Source: Pseudoxanthomonas sangjuensis (GTDB taxonomy: Bacteria > Pseudomonadota > Gammaproteobacteria > Xanthomonadales > Xanthomonadaceae). Taken from it: a DNA stretch of 64,000 nt. Position 1 is the first letter of the stretch, and each line of letters starts with the position of its first letter. Position numbers and translations under genes: made by a program. Shown here one piece after another: positions 12,727 through 28,403 of the stretch. The notes under the pieces were generated by a model. It was given only the letters and a program-made list of their open reading frames with translations, did no database searches and was not told where the DNA came from. The DNA lies in the NCBI RefSeq assembly GCF_010211755.1, contig NZ_PDWR01000007.1, positions 62,001 to 126,000 of the forward strand, in the 5' to 3' direction.

Positions 12727-13938
12727 TCATTTCGCGTAGTAGTTGGTCGTCACGCGGATGTCGACGCAGTCGTCCGTGGCCTGGATGTGGGCGCCGTTGC
12801 CGTGGTTGCCGCCGACGAGGCCGGTCATCGCCACCAGCGGGTTGATGGCCGTATTCACGCCGTGCAGGCGGGTGTGGTTGTTGCGGAAGACGTTGCCGCT
12901 GACCTGGTAGGAGGTCGTCGCCGAGCGCAGCATCACGCCCTGCAGGTAGTTGTGCTCGAAGCGGTTGAGCGCGACGTAGCCCTTGTAGGGCGAGATGGCC
13001 AGGATGCCGTAGCCGCCGTTGTAAACGACGGTGCAGTGCCTGATCGTCACGCCGCTGACGCGCTTGTAGACCTGGATGCCGTTGCCCTGGTTGTTGCGGA
13101 CCAGGCAATTCTCGATGTGGACGGTCGAGGTCGTTCCCGAGTCGTTCGCATCGGGCTCGATGTCGATGCCGCAACCGGGCGCGACGCCGTTGCTGTAGCT
13201 GAATTCCGAGTCGTAGACCTTGACGCCGCTGGAGCGGCCGATCGACAGCCCCTGGCGGCGGTTGTTGGTGGAAACGACGTTGGCGACGACGACGTCCTGC
13301 GAAGCGATGGTCGGCGCGCCGGCCACCATCGCGCCGCCGATGGAAAGGCCGTCGCCCCAGCACTTGGACAGGTGGATGTCGCGGATCGTCACGCGCGAAG
13401 ATCCGCGCACCATGATCGCGTGGCCCCATTCGCCGGTCGTGCCCAGGTGGGTGTCGCGGTCGCCGACGATCTGGCCGCCGGAAATCTCCACGTCGCTGAC
13501 CTTGTAGACCATCACCACGTAGGCGCGGTCGGCGTCGTTGCGCTTGGCCACCAGCTTGGCGCCGTCCGCCAGCTGCAGGTGCATCTTGCTGCGCAGGCGC
13601 AGGTTGCGGGTCGGGTCGATCACGTAGGTGCCGGCGGGAATGTAGATGGTGCCGCCATCGGACGGCAGCGCATCGATCGAGCTCTGGATGGCGGTGGTGT
13701 CGTCGTGGATGCCGTCGCCGTGGGCGCCGCGATCGCGCACGTTCAGGATCGCGCTGCCACGGGCCCGCTTCGGCGGGATGTAGGTCGAATCCAGGGTGCT
13801 GCCGGCGGCGGCGAACGCGCGCTGGAGGCCGGTGGCGGTCAGGACGCCGGTGGCGGCGAGGAGCAGGGAGTTGCGAAGGAAATTGCGGCGCGACAGCTTC
13901 GTGTCGCGCGCGTCGTGGGTGCGCGTTGCGTGGTTCAC
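12727..13938 (-). CDS. Tat-exported right-handed beta-helix protein (Pectate_lyase_3-like)
   Basis: 403-aa protein with a Tat-type signal (SRRNFLRN at 16-23, then a hydrophobic core ending near AFAAAG). The signal leads into a Pectate_lyase_3 domain marked by [15 protein letters not shown] and [14 protein letters not shown], then a ladder of parallel beta-helix repeats. Such folds cleave or epimerise acidic polysaccharides, or bind them. The GTG start at 13938 has an AGGGGA about 8 bases upstream; the frame stays open beyond it without such a site. A close paralogue lies immediately upstream (14193-15296). A periplasmic lyase, epimerase or length-control role for the exopolysaccharide is inference; no catalytic residues can be assigned safely. 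Confidence 0.85.
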
Positions 13939-14192
13939 CGGATATCCCCTGGAGCTGCAGGATCGATTGCGGAATTGCCGTGCGTGCGTTGCACGCGTTC
14001 CAGTCGCGCTTCTTCCGAAACATCTGCGACTGCGGGACGCAAAGATAGATGCAGTCGCATCGACTCGCCAGAGCTTCGGCGCGTATCTGTGCACGCGCGC
14101 AACTATTTCTTCCTGAACCATTCAGACGATTGCGCATTCAAGTTGATGAATGTGCGAACGACTACAAACGTGAATGACGAAGGGAGAAAAAT
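13939..14192. promoter_or_regulatory. AT-richer spacer between the two beta-helix genes, likely promoter region
   Basis: 254 bases without a gene separate the tandem paralogues. The stretch 14110-14195 is markedly richer in A and T than anything around it, which fits a promoter or 5' leader for the downstream beta-helix gene (minus strand). I could not fix a convincing -35/-10 pair. No hairpin terminator for the upstream paralogue was seen. Confidence 0.35.
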
Positions 14193-15296
14193 TCAATCGA
14201 CGACGCGGTTGTCGTCGGCGATGCGGACTTGCCGCGCCCGCCCCGATACCGCGATCTGCCGGCGCCACGCGCGCGCCGCGCCGACGCGGCCGTTGCCGGC
14301 GAACTCGTTCAGGCTGACGGTGATCCCGCGCGCGCCCGGGCGCAGGGCGATACCGCCGAGGGCGTTGCGGCGGATCGCATTGCCGACGATCCGGCAATCC
14401 TCGGCGCCGATGGCGAGCACGCCGTGGCCGCGATTGGCTTCGATGACGCAATCGCGCACCGTGACCGCGAAGCTGCGCCGGTACAGCTGGATGCCGGCGC
14501 CGCGGTTGCCGCGTATCGCGCAGCGGGCGATGACGATGTCGCGGGCGACGTCGCCGGGGTCGGGTTCGACGTCGATGCCGCAACCGGGCAGCGTGCCGCC
14601 GGTGTCGGCGAATTCGCAATCGCTGACGCGCACGTGGCGCGAACGGCCGATGGTCAATCCCTGCCGGCGGTTGCCGATGCTGCGCACCCGCGTCACGACG
14701 ATGTCGCGGCTCGGCGTCGGCCTGCCGTCGGCAGCCTTGCTGCCGCCGATGCTGAGGCCATCGCCCCAGCACCGCGCGACGTGCAGGTCGCGGACGGTGA
14801 CGGCGGTGGCGCCGCGGATCATCAGGCCGTGGCCCCACTCGCCGGTGGTGCCCAAATGACCGTCGCGCTCGCCGACGATCTGGCCGCCGGAGATCTCCAC
14901 GTCGTGCACGTCGCGGGCCTCGAGCACGTAGGCGCGCGCGGCCGCATTCGGTCTGGCGAGCAGGCGCGCGCCCGGGTCCATCCGCAGGTGCATGCGACTG
15001 CGCAGGCGCACGCCGCGCACCGGGTCGAGCAGGTAGTCGCCAGCGGGCACCCGCACGGTGCCGCCGGCCGGCGGCAGCGCGGCGATCGCAGCCCGGAACG
15101 CGTCGGTGTCGTCGTGGCGACCGTCGCCACGGGCGCCACAGGCGCGCACGTCGACGCGGGTCGCGCCGCGCGCGCGCGCTTTCGCCACCGCCGCGCCTTG
15201 CGCGCGCGACGGCCGCGGCAGCAGCAATGCGCAAGCCAGGCACTGCAGCAGCGCCCGGCGCCCCGCGTCCGGGTCAGTTCGGCGGCGGATGCCCAT
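14193..15296 (-). CDS. Right-handed beta-helix protein, paralogue of the neighbouring gene
   Basis: 367-aa exported beta-helix protein with an N-terminal signal containing GRRALLQCLACALLL, probably a Tat signal. The Pectate_lyase_3 signature is GARGDGRHDDTDAF followed by GGTVRVPAGDYLLD. It shares long near-identical blocks with the protein at 12727-13938, notably [21 protein letters not shown] and [11 protein letters not shown]. The two are therefore tandem duplicates that have diverged elsewhere. The ATG at 15296 gives a sensible signal peptide and a 23-base overlap with the asparagine-synthase-like gene. Enzymatic activity is not proven; a polysaccharide lyase, epimerase or anchor protein are the alternatives. 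Confidence 0.83.
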   Translation of the reverse strand: MGIRRRTDPDAGRRALLQCLACALLLPRPSRAQGAAVAKARARGATRVDVRACGARGDGRHDDTDAFRAAIAALPPAGGTVRVPAGDYLLDPVRGVRLRSRMHLRMDPGARLLARPNAAARAYVLEARDVHDVEISGGQIVGERDGHLGTTGEWGHGLMIRGATAVTVRDLHVARCWGDGLSIGGSKAADGRPTPSRDIVVTRVRSIGNRRQGLTIGRSRHVRVSDCEFADTGGTLPGCGIDVEPDPGDVARDIVIARCAIRGNRGAGIQLYRRSFAVTVRDCVIEANRGHGVLAIGAEDCRIVGNAIRRNALGGIALRPGARGITVSLNEFAGNGRVGAARAWRRQIAVSGRARQVRIADDNRVVD

Positions 15297-16716
15297 GGCG
15301 CGCTGTCCCGGCCGTCGCCGGCGTGCCGCGATGGGATGCCGCGTCCAGCCACGGCAGCGCGATCGCCAGCAGGTAGAACTTCGACGCATGGAACTTGTTG
15401 TCCAGGCGCTTGCGGTTGCGGTCCAGCCAGGCGCCCGCGCCGGGCAACAGGTCGCGCATGCGGTCGGCGCAGTCGCGCACGCGGTCGAACCGTTGCCGCG
15501 CCAGGCCGCGCAGGTCGAAGCGGAACGAGCCCTTGCTCCGCGTGTAGGGCAAGCCCTGGAAGCGCGTGGCGATGTGCTGGCGGATCAGCAGCTTGTTCAA
15601 CTGCGTGACGGGATCCACCTTCTCGTAACGCGGCACCTCGTGGTGGATCCACTCGCGCAGGGCGATGTCGCAGAAAGGATAGGCGGCCCGCAGCGACAGC
15701 GCGTCGGCGACGTACAGGCCCTTGGCGAAGGCGCCGGCGGAGCCGGCGATCGACGTGGACATGTCGCGCCATTCGCTGGCGCTGGTCGCCGAACCGATCT
15801 CCCGCTCGAACAGGGCGAGCCGCTGCCGCGACAGATGCGCGATCCTGCGTCCGAACAGCGCATCGACCTCCTCGTCCGCGAAGCGCGAACCGGGAAAGGC
15901 CCGCTCGACCGGGCTCATCATGAGCGTGCTGAGCAGGTAGCACAGGCGGAAGCTGCGCGCGACCGGCGGCAGGTCCATCAACCGCGCCGGCAGCCGCATG
16001 TCGCGCGCCAGCCTTCTCAGCAGGTGCTGGTGGCGGCTCATCGGCGTGCCGAAGTAGCTGTCGGCACCCAGCCCGTCGATGAAACCGTCGCCGCCGCAGG
16101 CGGCGATTTCCGTGCCCAGGTCGATGCACGACAGCAGGGCGAAGTCCGCGGTCAGCAGCGGCATGCGCGCGACGACGGCGAGGTACCGGTCGTAGGCGCG
16201 GCCGGGATCGCAGGCCAGCGCATGGTGGCGCAGGCCCAGCGTGCGCGCGACATGCGCCGCCGAGTCGACCTCGTTCTCCTCCGGTCCGCCCAGGTAGGTG
16301 ATGCAGGTGGTGTCCGGGCGCGCATCGGCAATGGCGATCGCCAGCGTGGTCGAGTCCTTGCCGCCGCTCTGCAGCAGCCACGGCGCGCGCATCCCGCGGC
16401 AGCTGCCGGCCACGGCGTCGCACAGCAGGCGGTGGTATTCGCCGACCCAGTCCTGCTCGCTGCTGGCTTCCTCCGGCACTTCGCCGGCGTTGCGGAACTT
16501 GAAGCGGAACCGCGGCGCCTCGTGCATGTCGTCGTGCGGCGAGAAACCGAAAGTGACCAGGCGCACGCCCTCGAAGATCGAGAACGGCGGATACACGAAC
16601 GCGTTGCGCAGCAGGTCGGCGATCGAGACCGGATCCAGCGGCGGCCGCTCGCCGCCGGACAGCGCCGAGAAATCCGGCGTGCCGTAGTACGGCGACATGG
16701 TGATCTGCAGGCGCAC
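15274..16716 (-). CDS. Asparagine-synthase-like protein lacking the glutaminase domain
   Basis: 480-aa protein with the PP-loop AMP-forming domain of class B asparagine synthases: SGGKDST at 117-123, then CITYLGGPEENEVD and GGDGFIDGLGAD. The N-terminal nucleophile glutaminase is missing: there is no Cys after the initiator Met. Only the short linker-like segment around PPFSIFEGVRLVTFGF resembles the end of that domain. It probably adenylates a carboxylate, perhaps to amidate a uronic acid or another substituent of the exopolysaccharide; that is inference from position. The GTG start at 16716 lies 3 bases after the wzc stop; an ATG six codons on (16698) is also possible. The C-terminus overlaps the next gene by 23 bases. 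Confidence 0.8.
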   Translation of the reverse strand: MRLQITMSPYYGTPDFSALSGGERPPLDPVSIADLLRNAFVYPPFSIFEGVRLVTFGFSPHDDMHEAPRFRFKFRNAGEVPEEASSEQDWVGEYHRLLCDAVAGSCRGMRAPWLLQSGGKDSTTLAIAIADARPDTTCITYLGGPEENEVDSAAHVARTLGLRHHALACDPGRAYDRYLAVVARMPLLTADFALLSCIDLGTEIAACGGDGFIDGLGADSYFGTPMSRHQHLLRRLARDMRLPARLMDLPPVARSFRLCYLLSTLMMSPVERAFPGSRFADEEVDALFGRRIAHLSRQRLALFEREIGSATSASEWRDMSTSIAGSAGAFAKGLYVADALSLRAAYPFCDIALREWIHHEVPRYEKVDPVTQLNKLLIRQHIATRFQGLPYTRSKGSFRFDLRGLARQRFDRVRDCADRMRDLLPGAGAWLDRNRKRLDNKFHASKFYLLAIALPWLDAASHRGTPATAGTARHGHPPPN

Positions 16717-16719
16717 GCG

Positions 16720-18984
16720 TCAATTCCCCGGCACGGGCTTGTGGAAGGTCTGGTAGTCGTAATAGGTGTACGTGTACTGGCCGGAACCGCGCTTCTCGAC
16801 CGCGTTGAAGATCGCGCCGCGCACGTCGACCCCGTTCTGCTCCAGCCGCTGCTTGGCCAGGGCGATCTCGCGCTGCTGGTTGAGGCCCCAGCGCACGACC
16901 AGCAGGCAGGTGCCGGCGTGGTGGCCGATCAGCGCCGCGTCGGTGACCGCCAGCACCGGCGGCGTGTCGACGACGACGACGTCGAAACGCCGCGAAAGCT
17001 GCCCCAGCAGTTGCTTGAAGCGCGGGCTCATCAGCAGCTCGGACGGGTTGGACGGAATCGCGCCGCGGGAGATGAACGACATGCGCTCGGTCCCGGGCAC
17101 CGCGCGCACCGCCTGCTCCGGATCGATCTTCCCGGCGATCAGCTCCGACAGCCCGCCTTCGGAACGCACCCCGACGGCCTGGTGCAGCGTGCCGCGGCGC
17201 ATGTCGGCGTCGACCAGCAGCACGCTCTGCCCCGACTGGGCGATCGTGACCGCGAGGTTGGCGCAGACGAAGGTCTTGCCGACGCCGGGGCTGGGCGCGG
17301 CGATCATCAGGACGTTGTTCTCCATCTCCGCCAGTGCGAAATGCAGGCTGGTGCGCAGGGTGCGCAGCGCCTCCATCGCCAGGTCGGACGGAGAGCGCAG
17401 CGCGAGCAGGCGCGGGCGCCCGTCGCGGCGCAGGCGGCCGGGGCGGTGGGCGACCTGCCGCCCCTTTTCGCTGAAGGGGATCGAGGCGTAGACGGGCAGG
17501 CCGAGCAGCTCGATGTCGATCGGGTCCTCGACGCCGCGCTTGAGCATCTGCCGCAGCAGCACGAAGGCGACCATCAGCATCGCGCCGAGCGCGGTGCCGC
17601 CGGCGACGGTCAGCAGCGGTTTCGGCCAGGCCGGCAGCGTCGGATTGACGTCCGCCGAATCGATCAGGCGCACGTTGCCGACCGCGCTGGCGCGGGCGAT
17701 GTTGAGTTGCTGCGCCTGGTCGAGCAGGTTGGCGTAGGTCTGGTTGATCACCTCGACGTCGCGATTGAGCCGGAACAGGCCCTGCTGCGTGTCGGGCAAC
17801 TGGTTGATCTGCCCCTGCAGCCGCGCCTTCTCCGACTGGAAGCGCTTGATCTGCGACGCCAGCGCCGCGTACGTCGGATGCGAAGGGGTGAAGCGGCTGG
17901 CGACATCGGCCAGCTGCATCTGCAGCTGGCGGATGTTGGAATCCAGCGCCACGCTCTGGTTCAGCAGCGCCTGGTTCTGCATGCCCACGTCGAGCGTGCC
18001 GGTATTGGTCTGGAAGGCGTTCAGCGCGGCCTGCGCATCGGCCAGTTCGCGGCGCACGTTGGGCAGCTGCTCGGTGACGAACTGCAGGCGCTTGGCCGCT
18101 TCGGCGGAGTTGCGCGCGATGTTCTGCCGCACGTAGGCCTGGGTGATCTCCTCCAGCACCTGCCGGGCGCGCTGCGGGTCCGGATTGGCGTAGGTCAGCG
18201 CGATGATGCCGGAGTTGCGGCCCTGCTCGGTGACGGTGATGTCGTTCTTCAGGCCGGCGAGCACCGCCATCGGGCTGAACTTGCGCACGTCGAACCGGGC
18301 GCCGGGATTGGCGACCAGCGTGCGCACGTCCAGCACCACGCCGTGGCCGTTGTCGGCGACCTGGCCGACGCTGCCGGTCAGCAACGGACGGTCCTCGGGG
18401 CCGAACAGCACGAAGCGCCCGCGCTCTCCCGCCACCAGCCGCAGCGGCGCATCCATCAACTCCGCGGGCAACGCCAGGCGCGCGATCCGGATCTGTTCGC
18501 CGCCCCAGCCGTACTGGTCCAGGCCGAACCATGCCGGCGCCAGCGCGCCCGGCTGCAGGCGCTGCTGCACGCGCGCGGCGAAGTCGCCGAGCAACGGCAT
18601 CCGCACCGGCGCGGCGGAAACGTCCAGGCCGAGCCGCGACATCGCTTCGCCGAGCACCCGGCGCGAGGTGATCAACTGCGATTCCGTGGCCGTCGGCGCA
18701 TCCACGGGCGGCGGCACCGGCGCGCTCTGGCTGGTCGCCAGGCCCGGCACGGTCGGCGGCCGGCTTTCCACCTGGACGACCGCATTGGCCTCGTACTGCG
18801 GCGTCGCCAGCAGCACGTAGGCGAGGCTGGCCAGTGAGAACAGCAGCGTGCCGAAGGCGATGGTCCATTTGCGATCGGTCAACGTGGACAGCAGGATCGG
18901 GATGTCGATGTCGTCGTCGCGCGGCGCCGACGACGGCAACAGGTGCAGGTTGGCTTGCGTGCGCGGGATCAGATGGCTGGGCAT
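16720..18984 (-). CDS. Wzc-type polysaccharide co-polymerase with BY-kinase domain
   Basis: 754-aa inner-membrane protein controlling chain length and export. The Wzz domain has transmembrane helices at about 40-60 and 455-477, with a long periplasmic coiled region between them. The cytoplasmic bacterial tyrosine kinase carries Walker A (APSPGVGKT, 563-571), Walker A' (VDADMRRG, 591-598) and Walker B (VVVVDTPP, 669-676). A C-terminal tyrosine cluster follows (Y737, Y739, Y741, Y742, Y744). Fused kinase and co-polymerase is the usual proteobacterial arrangement. Its counter-phosphatase is encoded at 21120-21566. Confidence 0.93.
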   Translation of the reverse strand: MPSHLIPRTQANLHLLPSSAPRDDDIDIPILLSTLTDRKWTIAFGTLLFSLASLAYVLLATPQYEANAVVQVESRPPTVPGLATSQSAPVPPPVDAPTATESQLITSRRVLGEAMSRLGLDVSAAPVRMPLLGDFAARVQQRLQPGALAPAWFGLDQYGWGGEQIRIARLALPAELMDAPLRLVAGERGRFVLFGPEDRPLLTGSVGQVADNGHGVVLDVRTLVANPGARFDVRKFSPMAVLAGLKNDITVTEQGRNSGIIALTYANPDPQRARQVLEEITQAYVRQNIARNSAEAAKRLQFVTEQLPNVRRELADAQAALNAFQTNTGTLDVGMQNQALLNQSVALDSNIRQLQMQLADVASRFTPSHPTYAALASQIKRFQSEKARLQGQINQLPDTQQGLFRLNRDVEVINQTYANLLDQAQQLNIARASAVGNVRLIDSADVNPTLPAWPKPLLTVAGGTALGAMLMVAFVLLRQMLKRGVEDPIDIELLGLPVYASIPFSEKGRQVAHRPGRLRRDGRPRLLALRSPSDLAMEALRTLRTSLHFALAEMENNVLMIAAPSPGVGKTFVCANLAVTIAQSGQSVLLVDADMRRGTLHQAVGVRSEGGLSELIAGKIDPEQAVRAVPGTERMSFISRGAIPSNPSELLMSPRFKQLLGQLSRRFDVVVVDTPPVLAVTDAALIGHHAGTCLLVVRWGLNQQREIALAKQRLEQNGVDVRGAIFNAVEKRGSGQYTYTYYDYQTFHKPVPGN

Positions 18985-19093
18985 GGATCGTTACCGAGTG
19001 TGCAAGGATGGAAGGAAGGCATCGCCGGCGGCGCATTGCGGCGGCGCGCAAGCGGCGGCGGGCAGGAAGGCGGATGCGCGGGGCGCGGGCCGC

Positions 19094-20848
19094 TCACGAG
19101 GCCTCCCACATGCCCGCGCGTCCCGGGTTTGGCGCACCTGCGCCCCGCGCCGGGGCCAGCAAGGCCTGGTCCGCAGGGCGCAGGCACGCCAATGCATCGA
19201 CGATGCGCGTGCAGGCGCCGCCATCGTCGACCGGATCGCCGGCGACCAGCACGCGGTCCGCCGGCACCCCTTCGTCGATCAGCCGCTGGCTGGTGGATTC
19301 GTCCGGCGCGACGTGCAGCGCGGCCAGCGCGCGCGCGATGCGCCGGCCCGGCTCGTCGCGCGCGTGCGCGGCGTCGACGCAGACGACGGGCACCTGGCTG
19401 TAGTGCGCCGCCAGCGCCGTCGTCAGCGTGGCATCGGTATCGCCCGGCACCAGCACCAGGTCGGGCCGCACATCGCCCATCACCCGCTGCAGTCCGTCCA
19501 GCGGCATCGCCTGCGTCCCGGACTGCCCAGAGGGCTGCGACGGCACTTCGATGTCGGCGACGAGATCGAACGCGTCCAGCACCCGCGCGGTCGTCCGCTC
19601 CGCCGCCTGCGCCACGCACAGCGTGGATTCGAAGCGGGCATCGCGGGCGAGCCGCTGCGCGATCGGCGCGAGCTGGTGCGCGTCCCGCCCATCGGCCAGT
19701 ACGCACAACGCCTTCACCGGCGCATGGGGCGCCGCCCCGTCGACCGCCGCGAGATCCTCCGCCAGCGGCGCGGCGGGCTCAGTGGCCTCGCCGTCGGCGC
19801 CGGGCGCCGTCGCGGCGCGGCGCCTGCGCGCGAGCATCGGCGACAGCCAGAGCACATAGGCCACCAGGCAGGCGAGGAAGGCCGTGGCCCTGCTCGGCTC
19901 CGGCAGCTTGCGCATGCCGTAGCCGAGCAATGCCAGCGCGCCGCACAGCAGCGCGATGCACAGCAGCGTCACGCGCGGCGACAGGCCCGCATCCAGCAGC
20001 AGGTGATGCAGGTGCTGGCGGTCGGCGCGGAAAGGCGAACCCCCGTTGCGCAGGCGACGGTACATCACCGACAGCGTGTCCATGACCGGCACGGCGACGC
20101 ACCACATCACGTCCACCGGCGCCATCCGCGCCACCCTGGGGTGGCTCAGGTAGATCAGGCTCCATGCCAGCAGGAAGCCGATCAGCGTGCTGCCGGCGTC
20201 GCCCATGAATATCTTGCGGCCGTCTGGCCAGCCCAGGTTGACGCAGAGGTAGGGGATCAGCGCCGCGAACAGCACCTGCAGCAGGAACAACACGCTCGGC
20301 GCCGAATGCCGTTCGTCGAACAGCAGGATCGCGCCGATGCAGATCATCGCGACCGTGGCCGCCAGCCCGTCGATGCCGTCGAGCATGTTGAAAGCGTTGA
20401 TCAGCCCGACCACCGCCACCACGGTGAAGGGGATCGCGAACGGCCCCAGGCCGAAAGGGTCGCCGACGACGGCGAAATCGCCCAGGTTGCGCACGTAGAT
20501 GCCGGACAGGGCGACGACCAGCAGCGTCGCGCCGCCCTCGATGAACAAGCGCGCGCGCACGCTCAGGTCGTGCGCATCGTCGAACACGCCCGCGACGACG
20601 ATGACCACGGCGCCGGCCATCAGGCTGGTGACGAAGCGGTCGAGATAGCCCAGGTAGGTCAGGCCGACCAGCGTTCCCAGGAAAAAACACAGGCCGCCGA
20701 CGAGCGGGATCCGGCCACGATGCTGCTTGCGGTTCCCCGGCCGGTCGATGAGCCCGATCGTGCGCGCCCACGGCCGGATCGAGAAAATGGCGAACAGGGT
20801 GACGGCCAGTGCGATGGCGCTGGCGGCGATCAGCTTGGGATCTCTCAT
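19094..20848 (-). CDS. WecA-like glycosyl-1-phosphate transferase fused to a partial UDP-GlcNAc 2-epimerase-like domain
   Basis: 584-aa protein in two parts. Residues 1-340 are a polytopic MraY/WecA family transferase that loads the first sugar phosphate onto undecaprenyl phosphate. Signatures are the acidic pair in FDDAHD (89-94), NAFNMLDGIDGLA (151-163), FMGDAGS (214-220) and HLHH (279-282). After an Ala/Pro-rich linker, residues 378-555 resemble the N-terminal Rossmann half of UDP-GlcNAc 2-epimerase, with RPDLVLVPGDTDATLTTALA (461-480) and LHVAPDESTSQRLIDEGV. The C-terminal half of the epimerase, which carries much of the active site, is absent, so epimerase activity is doubtful. GAGGAG about 10 bases before the ATG at 20848 supports the start. 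Confidence 0.85.
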   Translation of the reverse strand: MRDPKLIAASAIALAVTLFAIFSIRPWARTIGLIDRPGNRKQHRGRIPLVGGLCFFLGTLVGLTYLGYLDRFVTSLMAGAVVIVVAGVFDDAHDLSVRARLFIEGGATLLVVALSGIYVRNLGDFAVVGDPFGLGPFAIPFTVVAVVGLINAFNMLDGIDGLAATVAMICIGAILLFDERHSAPSVLFLLQVLFAALIPYLCVNLGWPDGRKIFMGDAGSTLIGFLLAWSLIYLSHPRVARMAPVDVMWCVAVPVMDTLSVMYRRLRNGGSPFRADRQHLHHLLLDAGLSPRVTLLCIALLCGALALLGYGMRKLPEPSRATAFLACLVAYVLWLSPMLARRRRAATAPGADGEATEPAAPLAEDLAAVDGAAPHAPVKALCVLADGRDAHQLAPIAQRLARDARFESTLCVAQAAERTTARVLDAFDLVADIEVPSQPSGQSGTQAMPLDGLQRVMGDVRPDLVLVPGDTDATLTTALAAHYSQVPVVCVDAAHARDEPGRRIARALAALHVAPDESTSQRLIDEGVPADRVLVAGDPVDDGGACTRIVDALACLRPADQALLAPARGAGAPNPGRAGMWEAS

Positions 20849-21642: not shown

Positions 21643-23010
21643 TCAGGCCGGGCAGTGGCGGTCGGCCACGGCGAGCGCCTCGTCGACGATCGCCAGCCCT
21701 TCGCGCAACGCCGGCTCGTCGATGACCAGCGGCGGCGCCACGTGCAGGCGATTGCCGGCGACGAAGGGCCACAGCCCGCGCCGCTTGCATGCGGCCGCGA
21801 ATTCCAGCATCGGCGCGTTGTCCGCGCCGGACGCGTTGAACGGCACCAGCGGCTCGCGGGAATCCTGATTGCGCACCAGTTCGATCGCCCAGAACGCGCC
21901 GAGGCCGCGCACCTCGCCGACGCATGGATGGCGCTGCTGCATCGCGCGCAGCGCCGGGCCGATCAGCGTTTCCCCCAGCGTGCGCGCGCGTTCGATGAGG
22001 TTTTCCTCGCGATAGATGCCGATGCAGGCGACCGCCGCGGCGCAGGCGAGCGGATGCCCGGCATAGGTGAGCCCGCCCGGATACGCGCGCACGGCGAAAC
22101 TCGCGGCGACCGCATCGCTCATGATCACCCCGCCCAGCGGCACGTAGCCGGAGTTGACGCCCTTGGCGAAGGCGATCAGGTCCGGCACGACGTTCCAGCG
22201 ATCGACCGCGAACCATTCGCCGCAACGGCCGAAGCCGGCCATCACCTCGTCGGCGATCATGACGATGCCGTGCGCGTCGCACAGCGCGCGCACGCCCTGC
22301 AGATAGCCGTCCGGCGGCACCAGGACGCCGTTGGCGCCGACCACCGATTCGACAAGGACCGCGGCGATGCCCTGCGCGCCCTCGACCATGATCGTGTCGG
22401 CCAGGTGCGCCAGCGCGCGCGTGCATTCCTCCTGCGCGTTCGAGGCGTGGAAGGCGGAACGATAGAGGTACGGCCCCCAGAAGCGGGCGTAGCCCGGTGC
22501 GCCCGGCTCCGACGGCCATCGCCGCGGATCGCCGGACGCGGTGATCGCGCCCGTGGTCGCGCCGTGGTAGCTGCGATACGCGGTCAGCACCTTGTGCCGC
22601 CCGGTATGCAGCCGCGCCATGCGGACCGCGTGCTCCACCGCTTCCGCGCCGCCATTGGTGAAGAACACGCGATCCAGGCCGCCGGGCGCGACCCCGGCGA
22701 TCAGCCGCGCGGCCTCGCTGGTCGCCGCGTTGGCGTGGTACGGCGCGATGGTGCACAGGCGTCCGGCCTGGGCGCGGATCGCCGCGACCAGCTTCGGATG
22801 CTGGTGGCCGACGTTGGCGTTGACCAGTTGGCTGGAGAAGTCGAGCCAGCGCCGACCGTCCTCGTCGCGGAAGTACGCGCCTTCCGCGCCGACGACGACG
22901 GTCGGCGCCAACGCGCCGTGCGCCGACCACGGATGCAGCACGTGCCGGCGATCGTCGCGACGCACGGGCGAAACGTCGTCGCGCATGCCGTCCATGCGGT
23001 CGTCGCCCAT
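21643..23010 (-). CDS. Class III pyridoxal-phosphate aminotransferase
   Basis: 455-aa fold-type I transaminase of the omega-amino-acid group. The PLP lysine is K283 in FAKGVNSGYVPLGG, the pyridine-nitrogen aspartate is D254 in ADEVMAGFGR, and SYHG (147-150) and NGGAEAVEHA (119-128) are typical. It resembles taurine-pyruvate and beta-alanine-pyruvate aminotransferases, but the substrate is not readable. It lies 9 bases downstream of the VOC gene and belongs to the same minus-strand unit as the diiron protein. That context suggests a role in making or breaking a small amino compound rather than in central metabolism. Confidence 0.88.
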   Translation of the reverse strand: MGDDRMDGMRDDVSPVRRDDRRHVLHPWSAHGALAPTVVVGAEGAYFRDEDGRRWLDFSSQLVNANVGHQHPKLVAAIRAQAGRLCTIAPYHANAATSEAARLIAGVAPGGLDRVFFTNGGAEAVEHAVRMARLHTGRHKVLTAYRSYHGATTGAITASGDPRRWPSEPGAPGYARFWGPYLYRSAFHASNAQEECTRALAHLADTIMVEGAQGIAAVLVESVVGANGVLVPPDGYLQGVRALCDAHGIVMIADEVMAGFGRCGEWFAVDRWNVVPDLIAFAKGVNSGYVPLGGVIMSDAVAASFAVRAYPGGLTYAGHPLACAAAVACIGIYREENLIERARTLGETLIGPALRAMQQRHPCVGEVRGLGAFWAIELVRNQDSREPLVPFNASGADNAPMLEFAAACKRRGLWPFVAGNRLHVAPPLVIDEPALREGLAIVDEALAVADRHCPA

Positions 23011-23019
23011 CGCGCGCCC

Positions 23020-23439
23020 TCAGGGAATGAAGGTCTGTTCCGGATCGTCGAACGACTTGAACTCCAATGCGTTGCCCGACGGATCGAACAGGAACATCGT
23101 CACGTGCTGGCCGGGCTTGCCCTTCAGGCGCAGGTGCGGCTCCTCGGCGAACGCCACGCCCGCGCCACGCAGCCGGTTCGCCAGCCCTTCCCAAGCCGCG
23201 CGGTCGAGGTTCATGCCGAAGTGCGGCACCGGCACCGCCTCGCCGTCGAAGCGGCCGCTCTGCAGCGGCTGGCCTTCGGGCGAAACGTGCGCGACCAGGT
23301 GGTGCCCGAAGAAGTCGAAGTCCTGGTAGCTCGTGTCGCTGCGTCCCTGCGGGCAGCCGATGACCTCGCCGTAGAAATGGCGCGCCTCGTCGAGGTCGCG
23401 CACCGGGAAGGCAAGGTGGAACTGGGCGATGCGGTTCAT
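23020..23439 (-). CDS. VOC-superfamily metalloenzyme (predicted extradiol-dioxygenase-like)
   Basis: 139-aa vicinal oxygen chelate protein with two beta-alpha-beta-beta-beta modules. The likely metal ligands are H8 (QFHLAF), H73 (VPHFGMN) and E126 (NALEFK), the 2-His-1-carboxylate set of iron dioxygenases and related enzymes. The sequence type matches the predicted dioxygenase group COG3565. The ATG (23439-23437) overlaps the stop of the diiron gene as ATGA, indicating coupled translation. The reaction is unknown; dioxygenase, lyase or isomerase activities are all found in this superfamily. Confidence 0.85.
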   Translation of the reverse strand: MNRIAQFHLAFPVRDLDEARHFYGEVIGCPQGRSDTSYQDFDFFGHHLVAHVSPEGQPLQSGRFDGEAVPVPHFGMNLDRAAWEGLANRLRGAGVAFAEEPHLRLKGKPGQHVTMFLFDPSGNALEFKSFDDPEQTFIP

Positions 23440-24215
23440 GCCGTCGCGCCCCGGCGCGGGACGCACTCCTCGAAGATGTTCTGCCAGAACCGGTTCCAGG
23501 CGGTGATGCTGCGCTCGTAGCCGAGCGCCAGCTCGGGCAGCGCGGCGGGCTCCTCGCGGATGTAGTCGTCGATCGCCCGGCGGGTCAGCTCGCCGTGCAC
23601 GATGTCGACCTCGCCGGTATGGATGGTCCAGAACTCCCACTCGATGCCGTCCGCATGCGCGCGGATGTACGGGTGCTCGCGCAGGTGCTCGAACATCACC
23701 GACAAATAGGTCTGGCACAGGCATTCGCCGCCCATGCCGCGCAGGCCCACGCCGAAGGCCGGGCTGCGCTCGGCCAGCTCGTCGCTGAGCGCTTCGAGGA
23801 TCGCGCCATTGCGCGGCAGGCGGCGCCCGAGTTCCTCCGCCGGCACGCCGATGCTGGCGAGGAAGCGGTCGTAGACTTCCGGGTGCGCCTTCGCGGGGTC
23901 GCCTTCGCCGAGCTCCTCGGCGAGGATCTGGCCCAGCAGGCTGCGCAATCCGCCGAACGGCAGCTTCGCCAGCAGCAGCGCGAGGTCCTTGATGTAGTCG
24001 ATGGTGAAGAAACGGTACTGCATGCACACGCGGCGCATCGCCTCGACGGACAGCAGGGGCAGCGCTTCCATCCGCCGCCCGGCGAGCGCCTCCGTCGCTT
24101 CCTTCGCCCGGTCGGCGAATTCCCAGAAGCTGTCGCGGTCCAGCGCGCGCGGCGGGATCGCGCCGGATTGCGCGAAGGTCGCCCGCGCGGCGTTCGGATG
24201 ATCTTGCAATGCCAT
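23436..24215 (-). CDS. Heme-oxygenase-like diiron oxidase (iron-containing redox enzyme family)
   Basis: 259-aa all-helical protein. Candidate iron ligands fall in the expected three places: E101/E104 and H111 in LAEELGEGDPAKAH, E164 in GMGGEC, and H199, D204 and H207 in IHTGEVDIVH. This is the pattern of the HDO group (CADD, UndA, BesC, SznF), which use O2 to cleave C-C bonds or N-oxygenate small substrates. Exact ligand assignment is not certain, as the spacing of the last helix differs slightly from CADD. The ATG at 24215 gives the normal family length; the frame continues upstream into non-homologous sequence. It is the first gene of the unit with the VOC protein and the aminotransferase. 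Confidence 0.8.
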   Translation of the reverse strand: MALQDHPNAARATFAQSGAIPPRALDRDSFWEFADRAKEATEALAGRRMEALPLLSVEAMRRVCMQYRFFTIDYIKDLALLLAKLPFGGLRSLLGQILAEELGEGDPAKAHPEVYDRFLASIGVPAEELGRRLPRNGAILEALSDELAERSPAFGVGLRGMGGECLCQTYLSVMFEHLREHPYIRAHADGIEWEFWTIHTGEVDIVHGELTRRAIDDYIREEPAALPELALGYERSITAWNRFWQNIFEECVPRRGATA

Positions 24216-24363
24216 GCAGCCACTCCGTTGACGACGGATGCGCACGAGTGTCACTGCCGCGATGCAGTCGCGGAGTGAAGGAATCGCGATGATGGCGGGA
24301 TCGCGGCGCGCTCCGCGCGCGCGATTCACTTCGCGTTGACCAACGTGGCGTAGTTTCGACAAC

Positions 24364-24428
24364 GATGAATGCAGTCGTGCGCGCTTCCCTCCGCGATTGC
24401 GGAATGCGCCCGCATTCATCTTCCGCAA
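24364..24428. promoter_or_regulatory. Inverted repeats in the divergent spacer
   Basis: The 296-base gap between the divergent diiron gene and PP-loop gene contains no gene. GATGAATGC at 24364-24372 is repeated inverted as GCATTCATC at 24412-24420. Nested around 24397-24428 is a second palindrome, TTGCGGAATGCG-CC-CGCATTC…CCGCAA. This looks like an operator region for a regulator acting on one or both directions. It also covers the upstream candidate start (24365) of the PP-loop gene, arguing for the later start. Confidence 0.35.
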
Positions 24429-24511
24429 CCGCGGGCCGGGTTCATCCGCGGTTGCGCAAACTGGCAACGCAACGCGGTATCCATCGGCTTTCCGGACGGA
24501 ACACCACCAGG

Positions 24512-25363
24512 GTGAGCGCAGGAACCACATCGCCACAGACGACGCCCGCCGCCGACTTCCCGGCGACGCACCTGCTGTGGACCGGCGGCTGGGATTCGAC
24601 CTTCCGCCTCCTGCAGTTGCTCCTGCTGCATCGCGTTCCGGTGGTGCCGCATTACCTGGAGGATCCCGCGCGCGCATCGACCCGGATCGAACTGGAGACG
24701 ATGGCGCGCATCGGCGATCGCATTCGCCACGACTGGCCGCACACCCGCGAACTGCTGCGGCCGCTGCGCGTCGCGCGCGTGGCAGACGTCGAGGTCGATG
24801 CGGGGATCGCCAGCGCGCTGCAGGCGATACGCCGCCGCAGCTACATCGGCAGCCAGTACGCGTGGCTGCCGGCGTTCTGCAGGCAGCACGGCATCGACGA
24901 CATGGAGTTGGGCGTGCACGTGGACGACAAGGTGCAGGCGCTGCTGCGCGGGTTCGTGACCACGTTCGAGCATCCCTGCGGTTACCGGAGCCTCCGCGTC
25001 GACCCCAGGCACGAAGCCTCGGCCGAATACCGGCTGTTCCGCTGGTTCAGCTTCCCGCTGTTCGGCATCGACAAGGTCGGCATCGGCCGCCAGGCCGAAG
25101 CCGAAGGCTGGGGCGCGGTGATGGAGATGACCTGGTTCTGCCACAACCCGGTGCGCGGCAGGCCCTGCGGCATCTGCGCGCCCTGCCTCTACACCATCGA
25201 GGAAGGGCTGGCGCACCGGGTGCCGCCGTCGCGGCGCGTGCTGTCGCTGCTCTATCGCCGCTTCGTGTTGCCGCTGAAGTCGCCGCTGCGGCGATTGCGC
25301 GCATGGCTGCGCGGCAACCGGAACGGCGCGCGTCCCGCCGCCCCCGACCTCGGCGGTCCGTGA
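24512..25363 (+). CDS. QueC-like PP-loop ATPase
   Basis: 283-aa N-type ATP pyrophosphatase. The PP-loop is TGGWDST (24-30), replacing the usual SGGxDS. The C-terminus has a four-cysteine metal site, C210-x8-C219-x2-C222-x2-C225 (FCHNP…RPCGICAPC), as in 7-cyano-7-deazaguanine synthase QueC. Queuosine genes are not nearby, and most of the QueC body is not conserved, so it probably activates another carboxylate through an adenylate. Start: I prefer the GTG at 24512, because the upstream alternative (ATG at 24365) adds 49 basic residues across a palindromic region. It is transcribed away from the diiron/VOC/aminotransferase unit. Confidence 0.75.
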   Translation: MSAGTTSPQTTPAADFPATHLLWTGGWDSTFRLLQLLLLHRVPVVPHYLEDPARASTRIELETMARIGDRIRHDWPHTRELLRPLRVARVADVEVDAGIASALQAIRRRSYIGSQYAWLPAFCRQHGIDDMELGVHVDDKVQALLRGFVTTFEHPCGYRSLRVDPRHEASAEYRLFRWFSFPLFGIDKVGIGRQAEAEGWGAVMEMTWFCHNPVRGRPCGICAPCLYTIEEGLAHRVPPSRRVLSLLYRRFVLPLKSPLRRLRAWLRGNRNGARPAAPDLGGP

Positions 25364-25729: not shown

Positions 25730-26371
25730 TCATTCGGCGCGATCGTAGGAGAACTGGATGCCCGCCGTGCCGCCGGTCTGGATGAACAGGTCGAGGAAGG
25801 CCGGCACCGTTTCCTTGCGCTGCCAGTCGCGCTGCAGTTCGCAGAACAGCTGCGCGACGCTGATCATTTTGCCACCGGCCTGCTCGATGCGGCGCAGGGC
25901 CATTTCGTGCGCGGCGACCGAGGTCCCGCCGACGGCGTCGGCGACGACGTAGACCTCGTAGCCTTCCTTCAGCGCGTCCAGCGCGGGGAAGGTCAGGCAG
26001 GCTTCGGTCCACAGCGCGGTCATGATCAGCTTCCTGCGCCCGGTGGCTTCGACCGCCTTGCGGAACTCGACGTCCTCCCAGGAATTGATCGTGGTGCGGT
26101 CGTAGGTCGGATAGTCGCCCAGGACCTTGCGCAGGTGCGGGATCGGCGGCTTGTTGAGGCCGGTCTTGACGTTGACCGTGGAGTGCACGATCGGCAGGCC
26201 GTAGGCGACGGCGGCCCTGGCGGTGCCGACGATGTTGTTGATCAGCAACTGGCGGTCCATCGAGGCGATGGAATTCACCTGCACGGGCTGGTAGTCGATG
26301 ATGACGAAGGCGGCGTTCTGCGGGGTCAGCAGGTGGTCGTTGACGGGATCACGGATCGGTTCGCTTGCCAT
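25730..26371 (-). CDS. Isochorismatase-like cysteine hydrolase (YcaC-like)
   Basis: 213-aa cysteine hydrolase. The catalytic triad members are visible: Asp in FVIIDYQPVQVNS, and Cys in the nucleophile segment ALWTEACLTFPALDA. The lysine is probably in the block before KLIMTALW. The form without an isochorismate lid resembles YcaC-type hydrolases, whose natural substrate is unknown. The start at 26371 (MASEPIRDPVNDHLL) follows CCGGAG at about 8-10 bases and matches family N-termini. It lies 100 bases downstream of the pirin gene, and the pair is found with the divergent LysR regulator. Confidence 0.87.
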   Translation of the reverse strand: MASEPIRDPVNDHLLTPQNAAFVIIDYQPVQVNSIASMDRQLLINNIVGTARAAVAYGLPIVHSTVNVKTGLNKPPIPHLRKVLGDYPTYDRTTINSWEDVEFRKAVEATGRRKLIMTALWTEACLTFPALDALKEGYEVYVVADAVGGTSVAAHEMALRRIEQAGGKMISVAQLFCELQRDWQRKETVPAFLDLFIQTGGTAGIQFSYDRAE

Positions 26372-26471
26372 GGGAGTGCTCCGGTTGGATGTGTGCCGAA
26401 ACGCGGCACGCGTGTTGCGAAAGGATTTCCGCAAGGAAAGGCGCCGACCCCGAAGGGCCGGCGCCGCGCCT

Positions 26472-27335
26472 CTACTGCATGCGGCCGAACTTGCCGCTGT
26501 TGAAATCGGCGATGGCCTGGCTGATTTCCTGCTGCGTGTTCATCACGAACGGGCCGTAGCCGACGATGGGTTCGTCGATCGGCTCGCCGGACAGCAGCAG
26601 CACGGTGGCGCCGCTGTTGGCTTCGATCGCGATGTCGCTGCCGTCGCGGGCCAGCGTCACCAGTTGCGCTTCGCGCGTCACCGCCGAACCGTTCACCAGC
26701 ACCGTGCCCTTGAGCACGACCAGCGCCAGCGTGCGGCCTTCGGGCAGGCTGAAGTTCGCGGTCTTGCCGGCGTTGAGGCGCACGTCCCACACGTCGATCG
26801 GGGTGAAGGTGCGCGCGGGGCCGCGATGGCCGCCGTACTCGCCGGCGATCACGCGCACGCGGCCCGCTTCGTCGGGCAGCCCGACACTCGGGATCTCGGC
26901 ATCGAGCAGGGTCTGGTAGCCCGGCGCGGCCATCTTGTCCTTCGCCGGCAGGTTGACCCACAGCTGCACCATTTCCAGGTTGCCGCCGGTGCGGGTGAAG
27001 TCGCCCGAGTGGAACTCCTCGTGCAGGATGCCCGACGCCGCGGTCATCCACTGCACGTCGCCCGGACCGATCTTGCCGCCGGCGCCGGTCGAGTCGCGGT
27101 GCTCGACCTCGCCCTCGTAGACGAGGGTCACCGTCTCGAAACCGCGGTGCGGGTGCTGGCCGACGCCGCGCGGCCGGGCTGCCGGGTCGAACCAGTGCGG
27201 GCCCGCGTAGTCGAGCAGCAGGAACGGGCTCAGGTCGCGGCCGTGGCTGTCGTAGGAAAACAGCGAGCGGGCCGGGAAGCCGTCGCCGACCCAGTGCGGG
27301 CGGGGGGCGCTGTAGACGCCAAGGATCTTTTTCAT
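26472..27335 (-). CDS. Pirin-family bicupin
   Basis: 287-aa pirin. The N-terminal cupin has the metal site in QHPHRGFETVTLVYEGE together with the later HEEFHSGD, giving three His and one Glu. The C-terminal cupin follows a hinge near residue 170. Bacterial pirins such as YhhW have quercetin 2,3-dioxygenase activity in vitro; others act by protein binding, so the cellular role is open. It heads a minus-strand unit with the hydrolase at 25730-26371 and is divergent from the LysR gene. Confidence 0.92.
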   Translation of the reverse strand: MKKILGVYSAPRPHWVGDGFPARSLFSYDSHGRDLSPFLLLDYAGPHWFDPAARPRGVGQHPHRGFETVTLVYEGEVEHRDSTGAGGKIGPGDVQWMTAASGILHEEFHSGDFTRTGGNLEMVQLWVNLPAKDKMAAPGYQTLLDAEIPSVGLPDEAGRVRVIAGEYGGHRGPARTFTPIDVWDVRLNAGKTANFSLPEGRTLALVVLKGTVLVNGSAVTREAQLVTLARDGSDIAIEANSGATVLLLSGEPIDEPIVGYGPFVMNTQQEISQAIADFNSGKFGRMQ

Positions 27336-27404
27336 GCCGATTCACTCCAGCTTTTCGCGGAACCGCGGGAGGCGGTCGCTTACGTTGGGCGAATGATGAA
27401 ACTG

Positions 27405-27464
27405 GAACGCTGGCCCCGGTAGTCGGCAGGATTTATCCTCAGCGTCCTGTTTGGTGAACGCTGG
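27405..27464. promoter_or_regulatory. Direct repeats in the pirin/LysR divergent region
   Basis: The 141-base spacer between the divergent pirin and LysR genes holds the 9-bp direct repeat GAACGCTGG at 27405-27413 and 27456-27464. The copies are 51 bases apart, close to five helical turns. LysR-type regulators commonly bind paired sites in such a spacer and repress their own gene. Assigning the sites to this regulator is inference; no clean T-N11-A dyad was singled out. Confidence 0.35.
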
Positions 27465-27476
27465 CAGGCATGCGGC

Positions 27477-28403
27477 ATGCAGGACCTGAACGACCTCTAC
27501 TACTTCACCCAGGTGGTCGAGCACGGCGGCTTCGCCCCCGCGGGGCGCGCGCTGGGCATGCCCAAGTCCAAGCTGAGCCGCCGCATCGCCCTGCTCGAAG
27601 AACGGCTGGGCGTGCGCTTGATCCATCGCTCGACGCGGCACTTCTCGGTCACGCCGATCGGGCAGACCTACTACGCCCATTGCAAGGCGATGCGGGTGGA
27701 AGCCGAGGCGGCCGAAGAGGCGATCGAGGCGGCGCGCAGCGAACCGCGCGGCATCGTGCGGGTGACCAGCCCGGTGTCGCTGCTGGACACCCTGGTCGCG
27801 CCGATGCTCGCGGATTTCATGGTCGAGTACCCGCGCGTGGAAGTGCACCTGGAAGCCACCAACCGCCGCGTCGACGTGATCGTCGAAGGCGTCGACGTCG
27901 CGCTGCGCGTGCGGCCGCCGCCGCTGGAGGACAGCGACCTGGTGATGCGGACGCTGGCCGAACTCAGCCAGTGCCTGGTCGCGAGTCCGAACTTGCTGGC
28001 GCAACATGGACTGCCGCGAGGACCCGCGGATCTTTCACGATACCCGAGCCTCGACCTGGGTATGCCGCAGAACGAACACGCCTGGAACCTGTTCGGCCCG
28101 GATGGCGCGCAAGCGACGATCTACCATCGTCCGCGTTTCATTACCCGCGGGATGCTCGCGTTGCGCGCCGCCGCCGTCGCCGGCGTCGGCATGGTGCAGT
28201 TGCCGACGCTGATGATCACCGAGCAACTGGCACGCGGCGAACTCGTGCCCGTGATCCCCGACTGGCGCCCGCGCCACGAGATCGCTCACGCGGTGTTCGC
28301 ATCGCGGCGCGGCCTGCTGCCGTCGGTACGCACGCTCGTCGACTTCCTCGCCACCCGGTTCGCGCAAGCCGGACCGGCCCAGATCGGCCGCCCGGAAAGT
28401 TGA
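27477..28403 (+). CDS. LysR-family transcriptional regulator
   Basis: 308-aa regulator. The N-terminal winged helix-turn-helix contains FAPAGRALGMPKSKLSRRIA (20 residues around 20-39), with the usual LEERLGVRLIHRSTRH following. The C-terminal periplasmic-binding-protein-like domain starts near RGIVRVTSPVS. The arrangement, divergent from a pirin gene and an isochorismatase-like hydrolase, suggests it controls that unit in response to a small ligand. Effector unknown. The ATG at 27477 is the conventional start, MQDLNDLYYFTQVVE. Confidence 0.92.
   Translation: MQDLNDLYYFTQVVEHGGFAPAGRALGMPKSKLSRRIALLEERLGVRLIHRSTRHFSVTPIGQTYYAHCKAMRVEAEAAEEAIEAARSEPRGIVRVTSPVSLLDTLVAPMLADFMVEYPRVEVHLEATNRRVDVIVEGVDVALRVRPPPLEDSDLVMRTLAELSQCLVASPNLLAQHGLPRGPADLSRYPSLDLGMPQNEHAWNLFGPDGAQATIYHRPRFITRGMLALRAAAVAGVGMVQLPTLMITEQLARGELVPVIPDWRPRHEIAHAVFASRRGLLPSVRTLVDFLATRFAQAGPAQIGRPES

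What the first reader, a model, noticed from the sequence alone, without database searches (positions are those of the whole stretch)
21643..25363. Unnamed cluster: diiron HDO, VOC metalloenzyme, aminotransferase and divergent QueC-like ATPase
Seen: the HDO and VOC genes are coupled by an ATGA overlap, the aminotransferase follows after 9 bases, and a PP-loop ATPase with a QueC-type four-Cys site is divergent. The spacer between the two directions carries nested inverted repeats. Known: HDO enzymes (BesC, UndA, CADD, SznF) do unusual O2 chemistry on amino or fatty acids, VOC proteins supply a second metal centre, and PP-loop enzymes activate carboxylates. Inference: together they could build or break a small amino compound, for instance an N-oxygenated or C-C-cleaved product. 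I cannot match the set to a described pathway.
Basis: partly seen in the sequence, partly recalled or inferred. Interest (0 to 1): 0.72.

Follow-up and report, generated by a model that had tools for sequence, protein, structure and literature searches.

The report
Paired metal enzymes of unknown pathway
Relatives of Lysobacter carry a small co-inherited gene set in which two different metal enzymes, welded into one protein in some species, probably carry out two consecutive steps on an amino acid; the product is unknown.

Summary
In 297 genomes of the family, HDO orthologues occur in 37. A VOC of this kind lies next to all 37. The cluster-type aminotransferase occurs in 32 genomes, all of them HDO genomes, always within 3 kb. 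The PP-loop gene is beside HDO in 28 of 28 genomes of the window's clade, but in 0 of 9 of the other clade.

The key find lies outside the window: in those 9 genomes and in Steroidobacter, HDO and VOC are one fused protein. HDO-linked VOCs form one clade (97/96), with His47, Asn77 and His112 fixed in 31 of 31.

The HDO model matches CADD, BesC, FlcD and HrmI; six candidate metal ligands are invariant in 12 of 12 relatives.

Best reading: a two-metal-centre relay, HDO then VOC, on an amino-acid-like substrate. The design parallels SznF, with VOC in place of cupin; aminotransferase and PP-loop enzyme are accessory. Chemistry and product are not shown. The PP-loop protein is only QueC-like (below cut-off), and the inverted repeats are unremarkable.

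The parts
23436..24215 (-). HDO, 259 aa, heme-oxygenase-like dimetal enzyme; candidate ligands E101, H111, E164, H199, D204, H207
   Evidence: PF14518 54.7 bits, cut-off 28.9; AlphaFold pLDDT 86.4; Foldseek best hits CtCADD, BesC, FlcD; ligands invariant in 12 of 12 rows; all six align with Glu/His/Glu/His/Glu/His of BesC, and E101/H111 with SznF positions 215/225 (SznF residues named in PMC11705231)
23020..23439 (-). VOC metalloprotein, 139 aa, HDO-linked subclade; triad H8, H73, E126; subclade-specific H47, N77, H112
   Evidence: PF00903 32.9 bits, cut-off 20.6; nearest solved relative 3rri; tree; diagnostic residues; ATGA overlap with HDO
21643..23010 (-). class III (PLP) aminotransferase, 455 aa, PRK06062/NF004718 subfamily
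   Evidence: NF004718 715 bits, cut-off 472; best solved relative taurine:2-oxoglutarate aminotransferase 6jix; in the family found only in HDO genomes, 32 of 32
24512..25363 (+). divergent PP-loop ATP-pyrophosphatase-like protein with a four-Cys site (start at GTG 24512 or ATG 24365, not settled)
   Evidence: QueC 18.5 bits, below cut-off 22; TGGWDST near-invariant and C210, C219, C222, C225 invariant in 18 rows; AlphaFold pLDDT 90.4; Foldseek TilS, NcsA, YcfA, TtuA, Cap9, TM by query 0.33-0.43 in the 35 hits at E<=0.001
24216..24511 (.). shared divergent spacer; three RTGAAY motifs towards HDO, starting at 24445, 24419 and 24329 on the - strand
   Evidence: motif enriched in 20 representative spacers; positions

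Best explanation
This is the Lysobacteraceae form of a co-inherited small-molecule pathway whose core is a two-metal-centre relay. An HDO uses O2 at a dimetal site to oxidise an amino acid or amino-acid-like amine. The product, probably unstable, passes to a dedicated VOC domain with a mononuclear 2-His-1-Glu site, which rearranges or cleaves it. A class III aminotransferase dedicated to the pathway adds or removes an amino group. In the window's clade, a PP-loop enzyme adenylates a carboxylate or carbonyl oxygen of a pathway compound. Shown here: the genes, complete candidate metal-ligand sets, co-inheritance, occurrence on different flanking backgrounds, natural HDO-VOC fusion, and a one-clade origin and specialisation of the VOC. 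Inferred: metal binding, substrate class, order of steps, and the roles of the aminotransferase and the PP-loop enzyme.
For: Co-occurrence: of 297 family genomes, 37 have the HDO (39 have a hit at E<=0.001; G115 and G137, at 28-29% identity, were set aside). VOC is adjacent in 37 of 37. The aminotransferase (E<=1e-140) is in 32 genomes, all HDO genomes, 32 of 32 within 3 kb, in the same 9 genera as HDO. It keeps company with HDO in two gene orders: same strand in the window's clade, convergent in the fused clade.
Fusion: HDO and VOC share one open frame in 9 of 9 genomes of the second clade (equal open-frame lengths) and in 6 contig loci, one of them Steroidobacter.
VOC specialisation: the 31 HDO-linked VOCs form one clade (97/96) against 18 stand-alone ones. 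H47 is fixed in 31 of 31 against Q in 18 of 18; N77 and H112 are also fixed (H112 occurs in 2 of 18 stand-alone). The metal triad is shared by all 49.
HDO fold and site.
Flanks: 10 flank groups among 24 clade-1 loci.
Amino-acid-type context in distant HDO relatives: EamA transporter, dehydrogenase and cupin protein in two Comamonadaceae; a HalD-like protein near HDO-VOC in Paraburkholderia.
Against: No substrate, product, metal content or activity has been measured. The aminotransferase is missing in 5 of 37 HDO genomes and the PP-loop gene in 9 of 37, plus 2 of 23 clade-1 contig loci, so neither is essential to the core. HDO relatives in Sorangium and Agrobacterium, which fall inside the branch of the fused forms in the HDO tree, have no VOC beside them. 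Co-occurrence counts are not independent, because the genomes are related. The whole-genome searches scored only the best few candidates per genome (5 for the aminotransferase), so absences are strong but not absolute. The alpha-3 motif H-x4-D-x2-H is one residue longer than in SznF (H311, D315, H318) and in the BesC alignment, and AlphaFold breaks the helix there, so the site geometry is unproven.
Confidence: 0.55

Rival explanations
1. HDO and VOC protect the cell (oxidative stress, desiccation or detoxification) rather than make a metabolite, as reported for the HDO-domain protein DtpC of Acinetobacter.
For: DtpC, with an HDO domain and essential Glu/His residues, supports desiccation tolerance (PMC13232832, section 6 read). 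Stand-alone VOC relatives occur in 20 of 297 genomes without this HDO; 8 were inspected and lie in mostly different contexts, as expected of housekeeping or detoxification genes.
Against: A dedicated aminotransferase, found only with HDO (32 of 32), and a PP-loop ATPase point to metabolism. Distribution is patchy even inside a genus (7 of 18 genomes of genus g1, window included). The HDO-linked VOC differs from the stand-alone ones at fixed positions.
Confidence: 0.15
2. The HDO is a CADD/NePabS-type self-sacrificing p-aminobenzoate synthase.
For: CtCADD is the best Foldseek match (E 1.6e-05, TM 0.81 by target). The family profile reaches CtCADD at 0.0007 and another 4-aminobenzoate synthase entry at 0.005.
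Against: BesC (9e-07) and FlcD (3e-05) score better by sequence. No NCBIfam model matches at E<=0.01. Two genes ring with the pabB model in the window's genome, both below its cut-off, so a canonical route is possible but not proven. By recall, pABA synthesis needs no VOC or aminotransferase of this kind.
Confidence: 0.05
3. Only HDO and VOC (with the aminotransferase where present) form a pathway. The PP-loop gene belongs to an unrelated, multi-copy family (for example cell-surface polysaccharide amidation) and is a long-standing neighbour.
For: PP-loop paralogues (37-59% identity) occur without HDO, up to five per genome. Three of those inspected sit in exopolysaccharide-type clusters between two members of a family whose scanned member is a beta-helix protein. 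The window's own cluster adjoins Wzc- and WecA-type genes. The gene is absent from all 9 fused-type genomes.
Against: It is adjacent and divergent in 28 of 28 clade-1 genomes and is found in 9 of the 10 flank groups, all but L046. The window's exopolysaccharide genes adjoin HDO in only 2 of 24 clade-1 loci. Five genomes without the aminotransferase still have the PP-loop gene.
Confidence: 0.3

Closest known systems
SznF/StzF (streptozotocin N-nitrosourea synthase)
   Same: HDO domain followed by a second, mononuclear-metal domain in one chain, two steps in sequence. E101/H111 align with SznF E215/H225.
   Different: The second domain is VOC, not cupin. The fused proteins (422-439 aa) leave no room for SznF's N-terminal domain. 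The alpha-3 motif is one residue longer. The reaction is unknown. [quoted passage not shown] the SznF homologue ChmM also has a cupin (PMC11705231, passage).
BesC (4-chloro-allylglycine synthase), HDO
   Same: Best sequence-profile match among solved proteins (9e-07), same fold, and all six candidate ligands align.
   Different: 19-20% identity in the structural match. No halogenase was noticed beside the window's cluster. That BesC acts on a free amino acid and has no VOC partner is recalled.
CtCADD / NePabS p-aminobenzoate synthases
   Same: Best Foldseek match.
   Different: 16-17% identity. No NCBIfam model matches.
VOC protein 3rri (function not stated in the listing)
   Same: Nearest solved relative of the VOC (4.7e-18); the triad residues align.
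   Different: Has Gln opposite H47 (alignment). Not linked here to an HDO.
Taurine:2-oxoglutarate aminotransferase (6jix)
   Same: Nearest solved relative of the aminotransferase (4.2e-111, residues 22-451).
   Different: The window protein belongs to NF004718/PRK06062, labelled 'hypothetical protein'.
QueC / YcfA / Cap9 PP-loop enzymes
   Same: PP-loop core and C-terminal four-Cys site; Foldseek lists YcfA and Cap9.
   Different: Below the QueC cut-off. TM by query only 0.33-0.43. The loop reads TGGWDST.

Membership tests
HDO superfamily | heme-oxygenase-like helical fold | tested here: met
   AlphaFold model pLDDT 86.4; 47 PDB chains at E<=0.001, led by HDOs and including PqqC and TenA relatives of the same fold
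HDO superfamily | three His and three carboxylates as metal ligands | tested here: met
   E101, H111, E164, H199, D204, H207 invariant in 12 of 12 rows; all six align with Glu/His/Glu/His/Glu/His in BesC, the first two with SznF 215/225. No metal was placed
HDO superfamily | bound dimetal centre and O2 activation | not testable with these tools
   needs protein, metal analysis and spectroscopy
SznF-type two-centre enzymes | HDO plus C-terminal cupin domain | tested here: not met
   the partner is VOC (PF00903), fused in the second clade. It may work like SznF but is not a member
CADD/NePabS pABA synthases | match to a family model | tested here: not met
   no NCBIfam match at E<=0.01
CADD/NePabS pABA synthases | sacrificed active-site Tyr | not tested
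   no residue mapping was made
VOC superfamily | Pfam Glyoxalase domain with H/H/E metal triad | tested here: met
   32.9 bits, cut-off 20.6; H8, H73, E126 in 49 of 49
Class III aminotransferases, PRK06062 | NF004718 above cut-off | tested here: met
   715 bits, cut-off 472
QueC | Pfam QueC above cut-off | tested here: not met
   18.5 bits, cut-off 22, only residues 230-275 of the long form
PP-loop ATP pyrophosphatases | PP-loop motif and fold | tested here: met
   TGGWDST near-invariant; Foldseek to TilS, NcsA, YcfA, TtuA at E<=1.4e-04, with modest TM

The most novel reading that the evidence does not exclude
HDO-VOC is a new two-centre catalytic architecture, the VOC counterpart of SznF's HDO-cupin. 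In it an HDO oxidises a free amino acid and a neofunctionalised VOC (His47, Asn77, His112 fixed) performs a rearrangement or bond cleavage not yet known for VOC enzymes. The outcome is a previously undescribed N-oxygenated, N-N bonded or carbon-shortened amino compound made from primary metabolites by three or four genes.
Probability: 0.3. Interest if true: 0.8.

Novelty: new variant of a known kind. Interest (0 to 1): 0.57.

Why it matters
A 2026 review counts about a dozen functionally validated HDOs and contrasts SznF, with its extra cupin domain, with the other characterised ones (PMC13108848). The fused and unfused HDO-VOC forms found here give a direct test of how a second metal centre is recruited to an HDO. 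The pathway is small enough (two to four genes) to be rebuilt in a laboratory host, so an unknown metabolite of Lysobacter, Luteimonas and Pseudoxanthomonas becomes directly searchable.

Tried and rejected
Inverted repeats as a structured element: rejected; folding is ordinary. Helical phasing of the RTGAA sites: no phase seen. Link to the window's exopolysaccharide genes: only the window and L032 of 24 clade-1 loci share them. Anti-phage defence: no PADLOC match for the four proteins at E<=0.1. pABA synthesis: weak; the pabB test is inconclusive, since only 4 of 14 control genomes pass its cut-off. Distribution beyond the family: 2 of 398 phylum genomes at E<=1e-20, namely the window's own and one of its genus. 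The genome-contig scan used only two short peptide patterns and so misses diverged relatives. An aminotransferase elsewhere in the 9 distant HDO genomes: best 43% identity (Sorangium), none at cluster-type identity.

Literature: the listings (titles and abstract starts; one search listed 10 of 13 papers, 3 of 5, 12 of 580) show no paper on an HDO-VOC pair or fusion. The library is open-licence PubMed Central only, so this is not proof of absence. PMC13108848: part 1 of 6 read, plus term searches. PMC13232832: passages and one section. PMC11705231, PMC13185094 and PMC11965152: passages only.

Rows dropped: L085, L086, L095 and L096 (second copies of loci already present) were left out of both trees and of the residue comparison. 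G115 and G137 were set aside as distant HDOs. In one search, 20 of 22 spacers were used; L046 and L050 have no PP-loop gene beside HDO. The 297-genome and contig sets overlap in species, so their counts must not be added.
Full report
What is there. The window lies in contig 74 of a 3.29-Mb genome (G000); its nearest HDO-cluster relatives are Lysobacteraceae. Reading right to left, 24215-21643 holds an HDO (259 aa), a VOC protein (139 aa) whose ATG overlaps the HDO stop, and a class III aminotransferase (455 aa) nine bases on. A PP-loop protein runs the other way to 25363. Pfam confirms Haem_oxygenas_2, Glyoxalase and Aminotran_3 above cut-off; QueC is below cut-off. The aminotransferase is an NF004718/PRK06062 member.

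Is the set real? Of 297 family genomes, 37 have the HDO: the window's own, 27 at 67-81% identity (together clade 1, 28 genomes), and 9 at 43-44% (the fused clade); two distant HDO hits were set aside. The VOC search (E<=1e-20) hits 57 genomes: all 37, at the HDO, and 20 others without this HDO. The aminotransferase (E<=1e-140) is in 32 genomes, every one an HDO genome and within 3 kb of HDO, in the same 9 of 54 genera. The five HDO genomes without it are of the window's own genus. The PP-loop gene lies beside HDO in 28 of 28 clade-1 genomes and is in 0 of 9 fused-clade genomes; another genome has a 59% copy without HDO, and more distant paralogues occur (38 genomes in all at E<=1e-15). Only the best few candidates per genome were scored in these searches, and the genomes are related, so the counts are neither exhaustive nor independent. 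But the 24 clade-1 loci, most with 10-kb flanks, fall into 10 flank groups, and the aminotransferase stays with HDO in both gene orders.

Named relatives. A scan of one genome each for 84,980 species with two HDO peptide patterns gave 37 loci: 23 clade-1 loci in Lysobacter, Luteimonas, Pseudoxanthomonas, Vulcaniibacterium and related MAGs (VOC in 23, aminotransferase in 17, PP-loop in 21); fused forms in five Lysobacter and one Steroidobacter; separate HDO and VOC in Paraburkholderia acidicola; and HDO without a neighbouring VOC in 7 loci: Sorangium, Agrobacterium, two cyanobacteria, two Comamonadaceae and a gammaproteobacterial MAG.

The fusion. In 9 of 9 fused-clade genomes the HDO and VOC matches lie in one open frame of equal length in both searches; six contig loci show single proteins of 422-439 aa. 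A tree of 49 VOCs puts the 31 HDO-linked ones in one clade (97/96), with the fused ones one branch (99/96) and the unfused Paraburkholderia VOC just outside them. In the HDO tree the fused branch (99/96) again has Paraburkholderia next to it (93/82), but Sorangium and Agrobacterium HDOs, which have no VOC beside them, join the same larger branch (long branches, weak placement). So the partnership probably arose once and was fused later on one branch, with loss of the link in some lines; other histories are not excluded. Against stand-alone VOCs, HDO-linked ones have His47 (31 of 31; Gln in 18 of 18), Asn77 and His112 fixed, while the triad His8/His73/Glu126 is common to all 49. This looks like recruitment and specialisation of an ordinary VOC.

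The HDO site. The AlphaFold model (pLDDT 86.4) matches CtCADD, BesC, FlcD, HrmI, UndA and SznF. Profile search ranks BesC (9e-07) first; FlcD follows at 3e-05. In the BesC alignment all six candidate ligands face Glu/His/Glu/His/Glu/His, with a gap opposite Gly201. E101 and H111 fall on SznF positions 215 and 225; SznF's essential residues E215, H225, E281, H311, D315 and H318 are listed in PMC11705231 (passage). The H199-D204 step is one residue longer than in SznF; invariant Gly201 coincides with a helix break.

The PP-loop protein. The model (pLDDT 90.4) resembles TilS, NcsA, YcfA, TtuA and Cap9 with modest TM (0.33-0.43 by query): an adenylating PP-loop enzyme of unassigned substrate. Among paralogue loci inspected, some lie in pairs, three in exopolysaccharide-type clusters and one between two related genes of which one scans as tyrosinase.

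Spacer. RTGAAY reading towards HDO is enriched (38 against 7.2 shuffled) in 20 representative clade-1 spacers; the inverted repeats are not remarkable. The regulator is unknown.

How it probably works. By analogy with SznF, where an HDO oxygenates an amino acid and a fused monoiron domain rearranges the product (PMC11705231, PMC13108848; passages), HDO would oxidise an amino-acid-like substrate and hand it to VOC. Fusion, gene overlap, common ancestry and VOC-specific residues support the hand-over; the chemistry is inferred. The review says that characterised HDOs act predominantly on fatty or amino acids; the dedicated transaminase favours an amino acid. Distant HDO relatives lie beside amino-acid-type genes: dehydrogenase, EamA transporter and cupin protein in Paracidovorax and Variovorax, and a HalD-like protein in Paraburkholderia. 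These are leads, not tests.

Verdict. Novelty: a new variant of a known kind (HDO plus second metal domain). The product stays unknown.

Noticed in passing
L054:4360-8803 (aff. Roholtiella): Four tandem small peptides with near-identical N-termini and a GG motif, then a choline-kinase/APH-like protein and a HopA1-family protein, then the HDO. By recall this resembles a class V lanthipeptide locus, so a cyanobacterial relative of this HDO may act on a peptide.
   Followed up: partly
L066:6132-10561 and L067:5937-10687: Shared order: divergent LysR, then 3-hydroxyisobutyrate-dehydrogenase-like, EamA transporter, a protein with a C-terminal cupin, and HDO: a second case of HDO beside a mononuclear-metal barrel.
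   Followed up: partly
L066:10549-13611 (Paracidovorax anthurii): The HDO gene is split by an insertion whose ORFs look like an IS66-type element (by recall, not scanned); described only.
   Followed up: no
L059:7474-8361 (Paraburkholderia acidicola): HalD-family (PF23169) protein across a LysR gene from HDO-VOC, beside an M24 peptidase and a betaine-type binding protein; BesC's partner BesD is of the HalD kind by recall.
   Followed up: no
L072, L073, L074: PP-loop paralogues at 43-46% identity each lie between two members of one family (the scanned one is a beta-helix protein), near Wzc-like proteins (Wzc-like by eye).
   Followed up: partly
window 12727-20848: Exopolysaccharide-type genes downstream of the cluster: two beta-helix proteins, an asparagine-synthase-like protein, Wzc, and a WecA-like protein whose C-terminal part matches UDP-GlcNAc 2-epimerase.
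   Followed up: no
window 25730-28403; L052, L064, L065: Isochorismatase-like, pirin and LysR genes near the window's cluster; relatives of the pirin (by clustering) also lie within 10 kb of HDO in three other loci. May be chance.
   Followed up: no
window 24324-24445 and spacers of relatives: RTGAA read towards HDO occurs 2-6 times in 17 of 22 spacers, once in one and not at all in four; GTATGCTC occurs in 6 of 20 representative spacers.
   Followed up: partly
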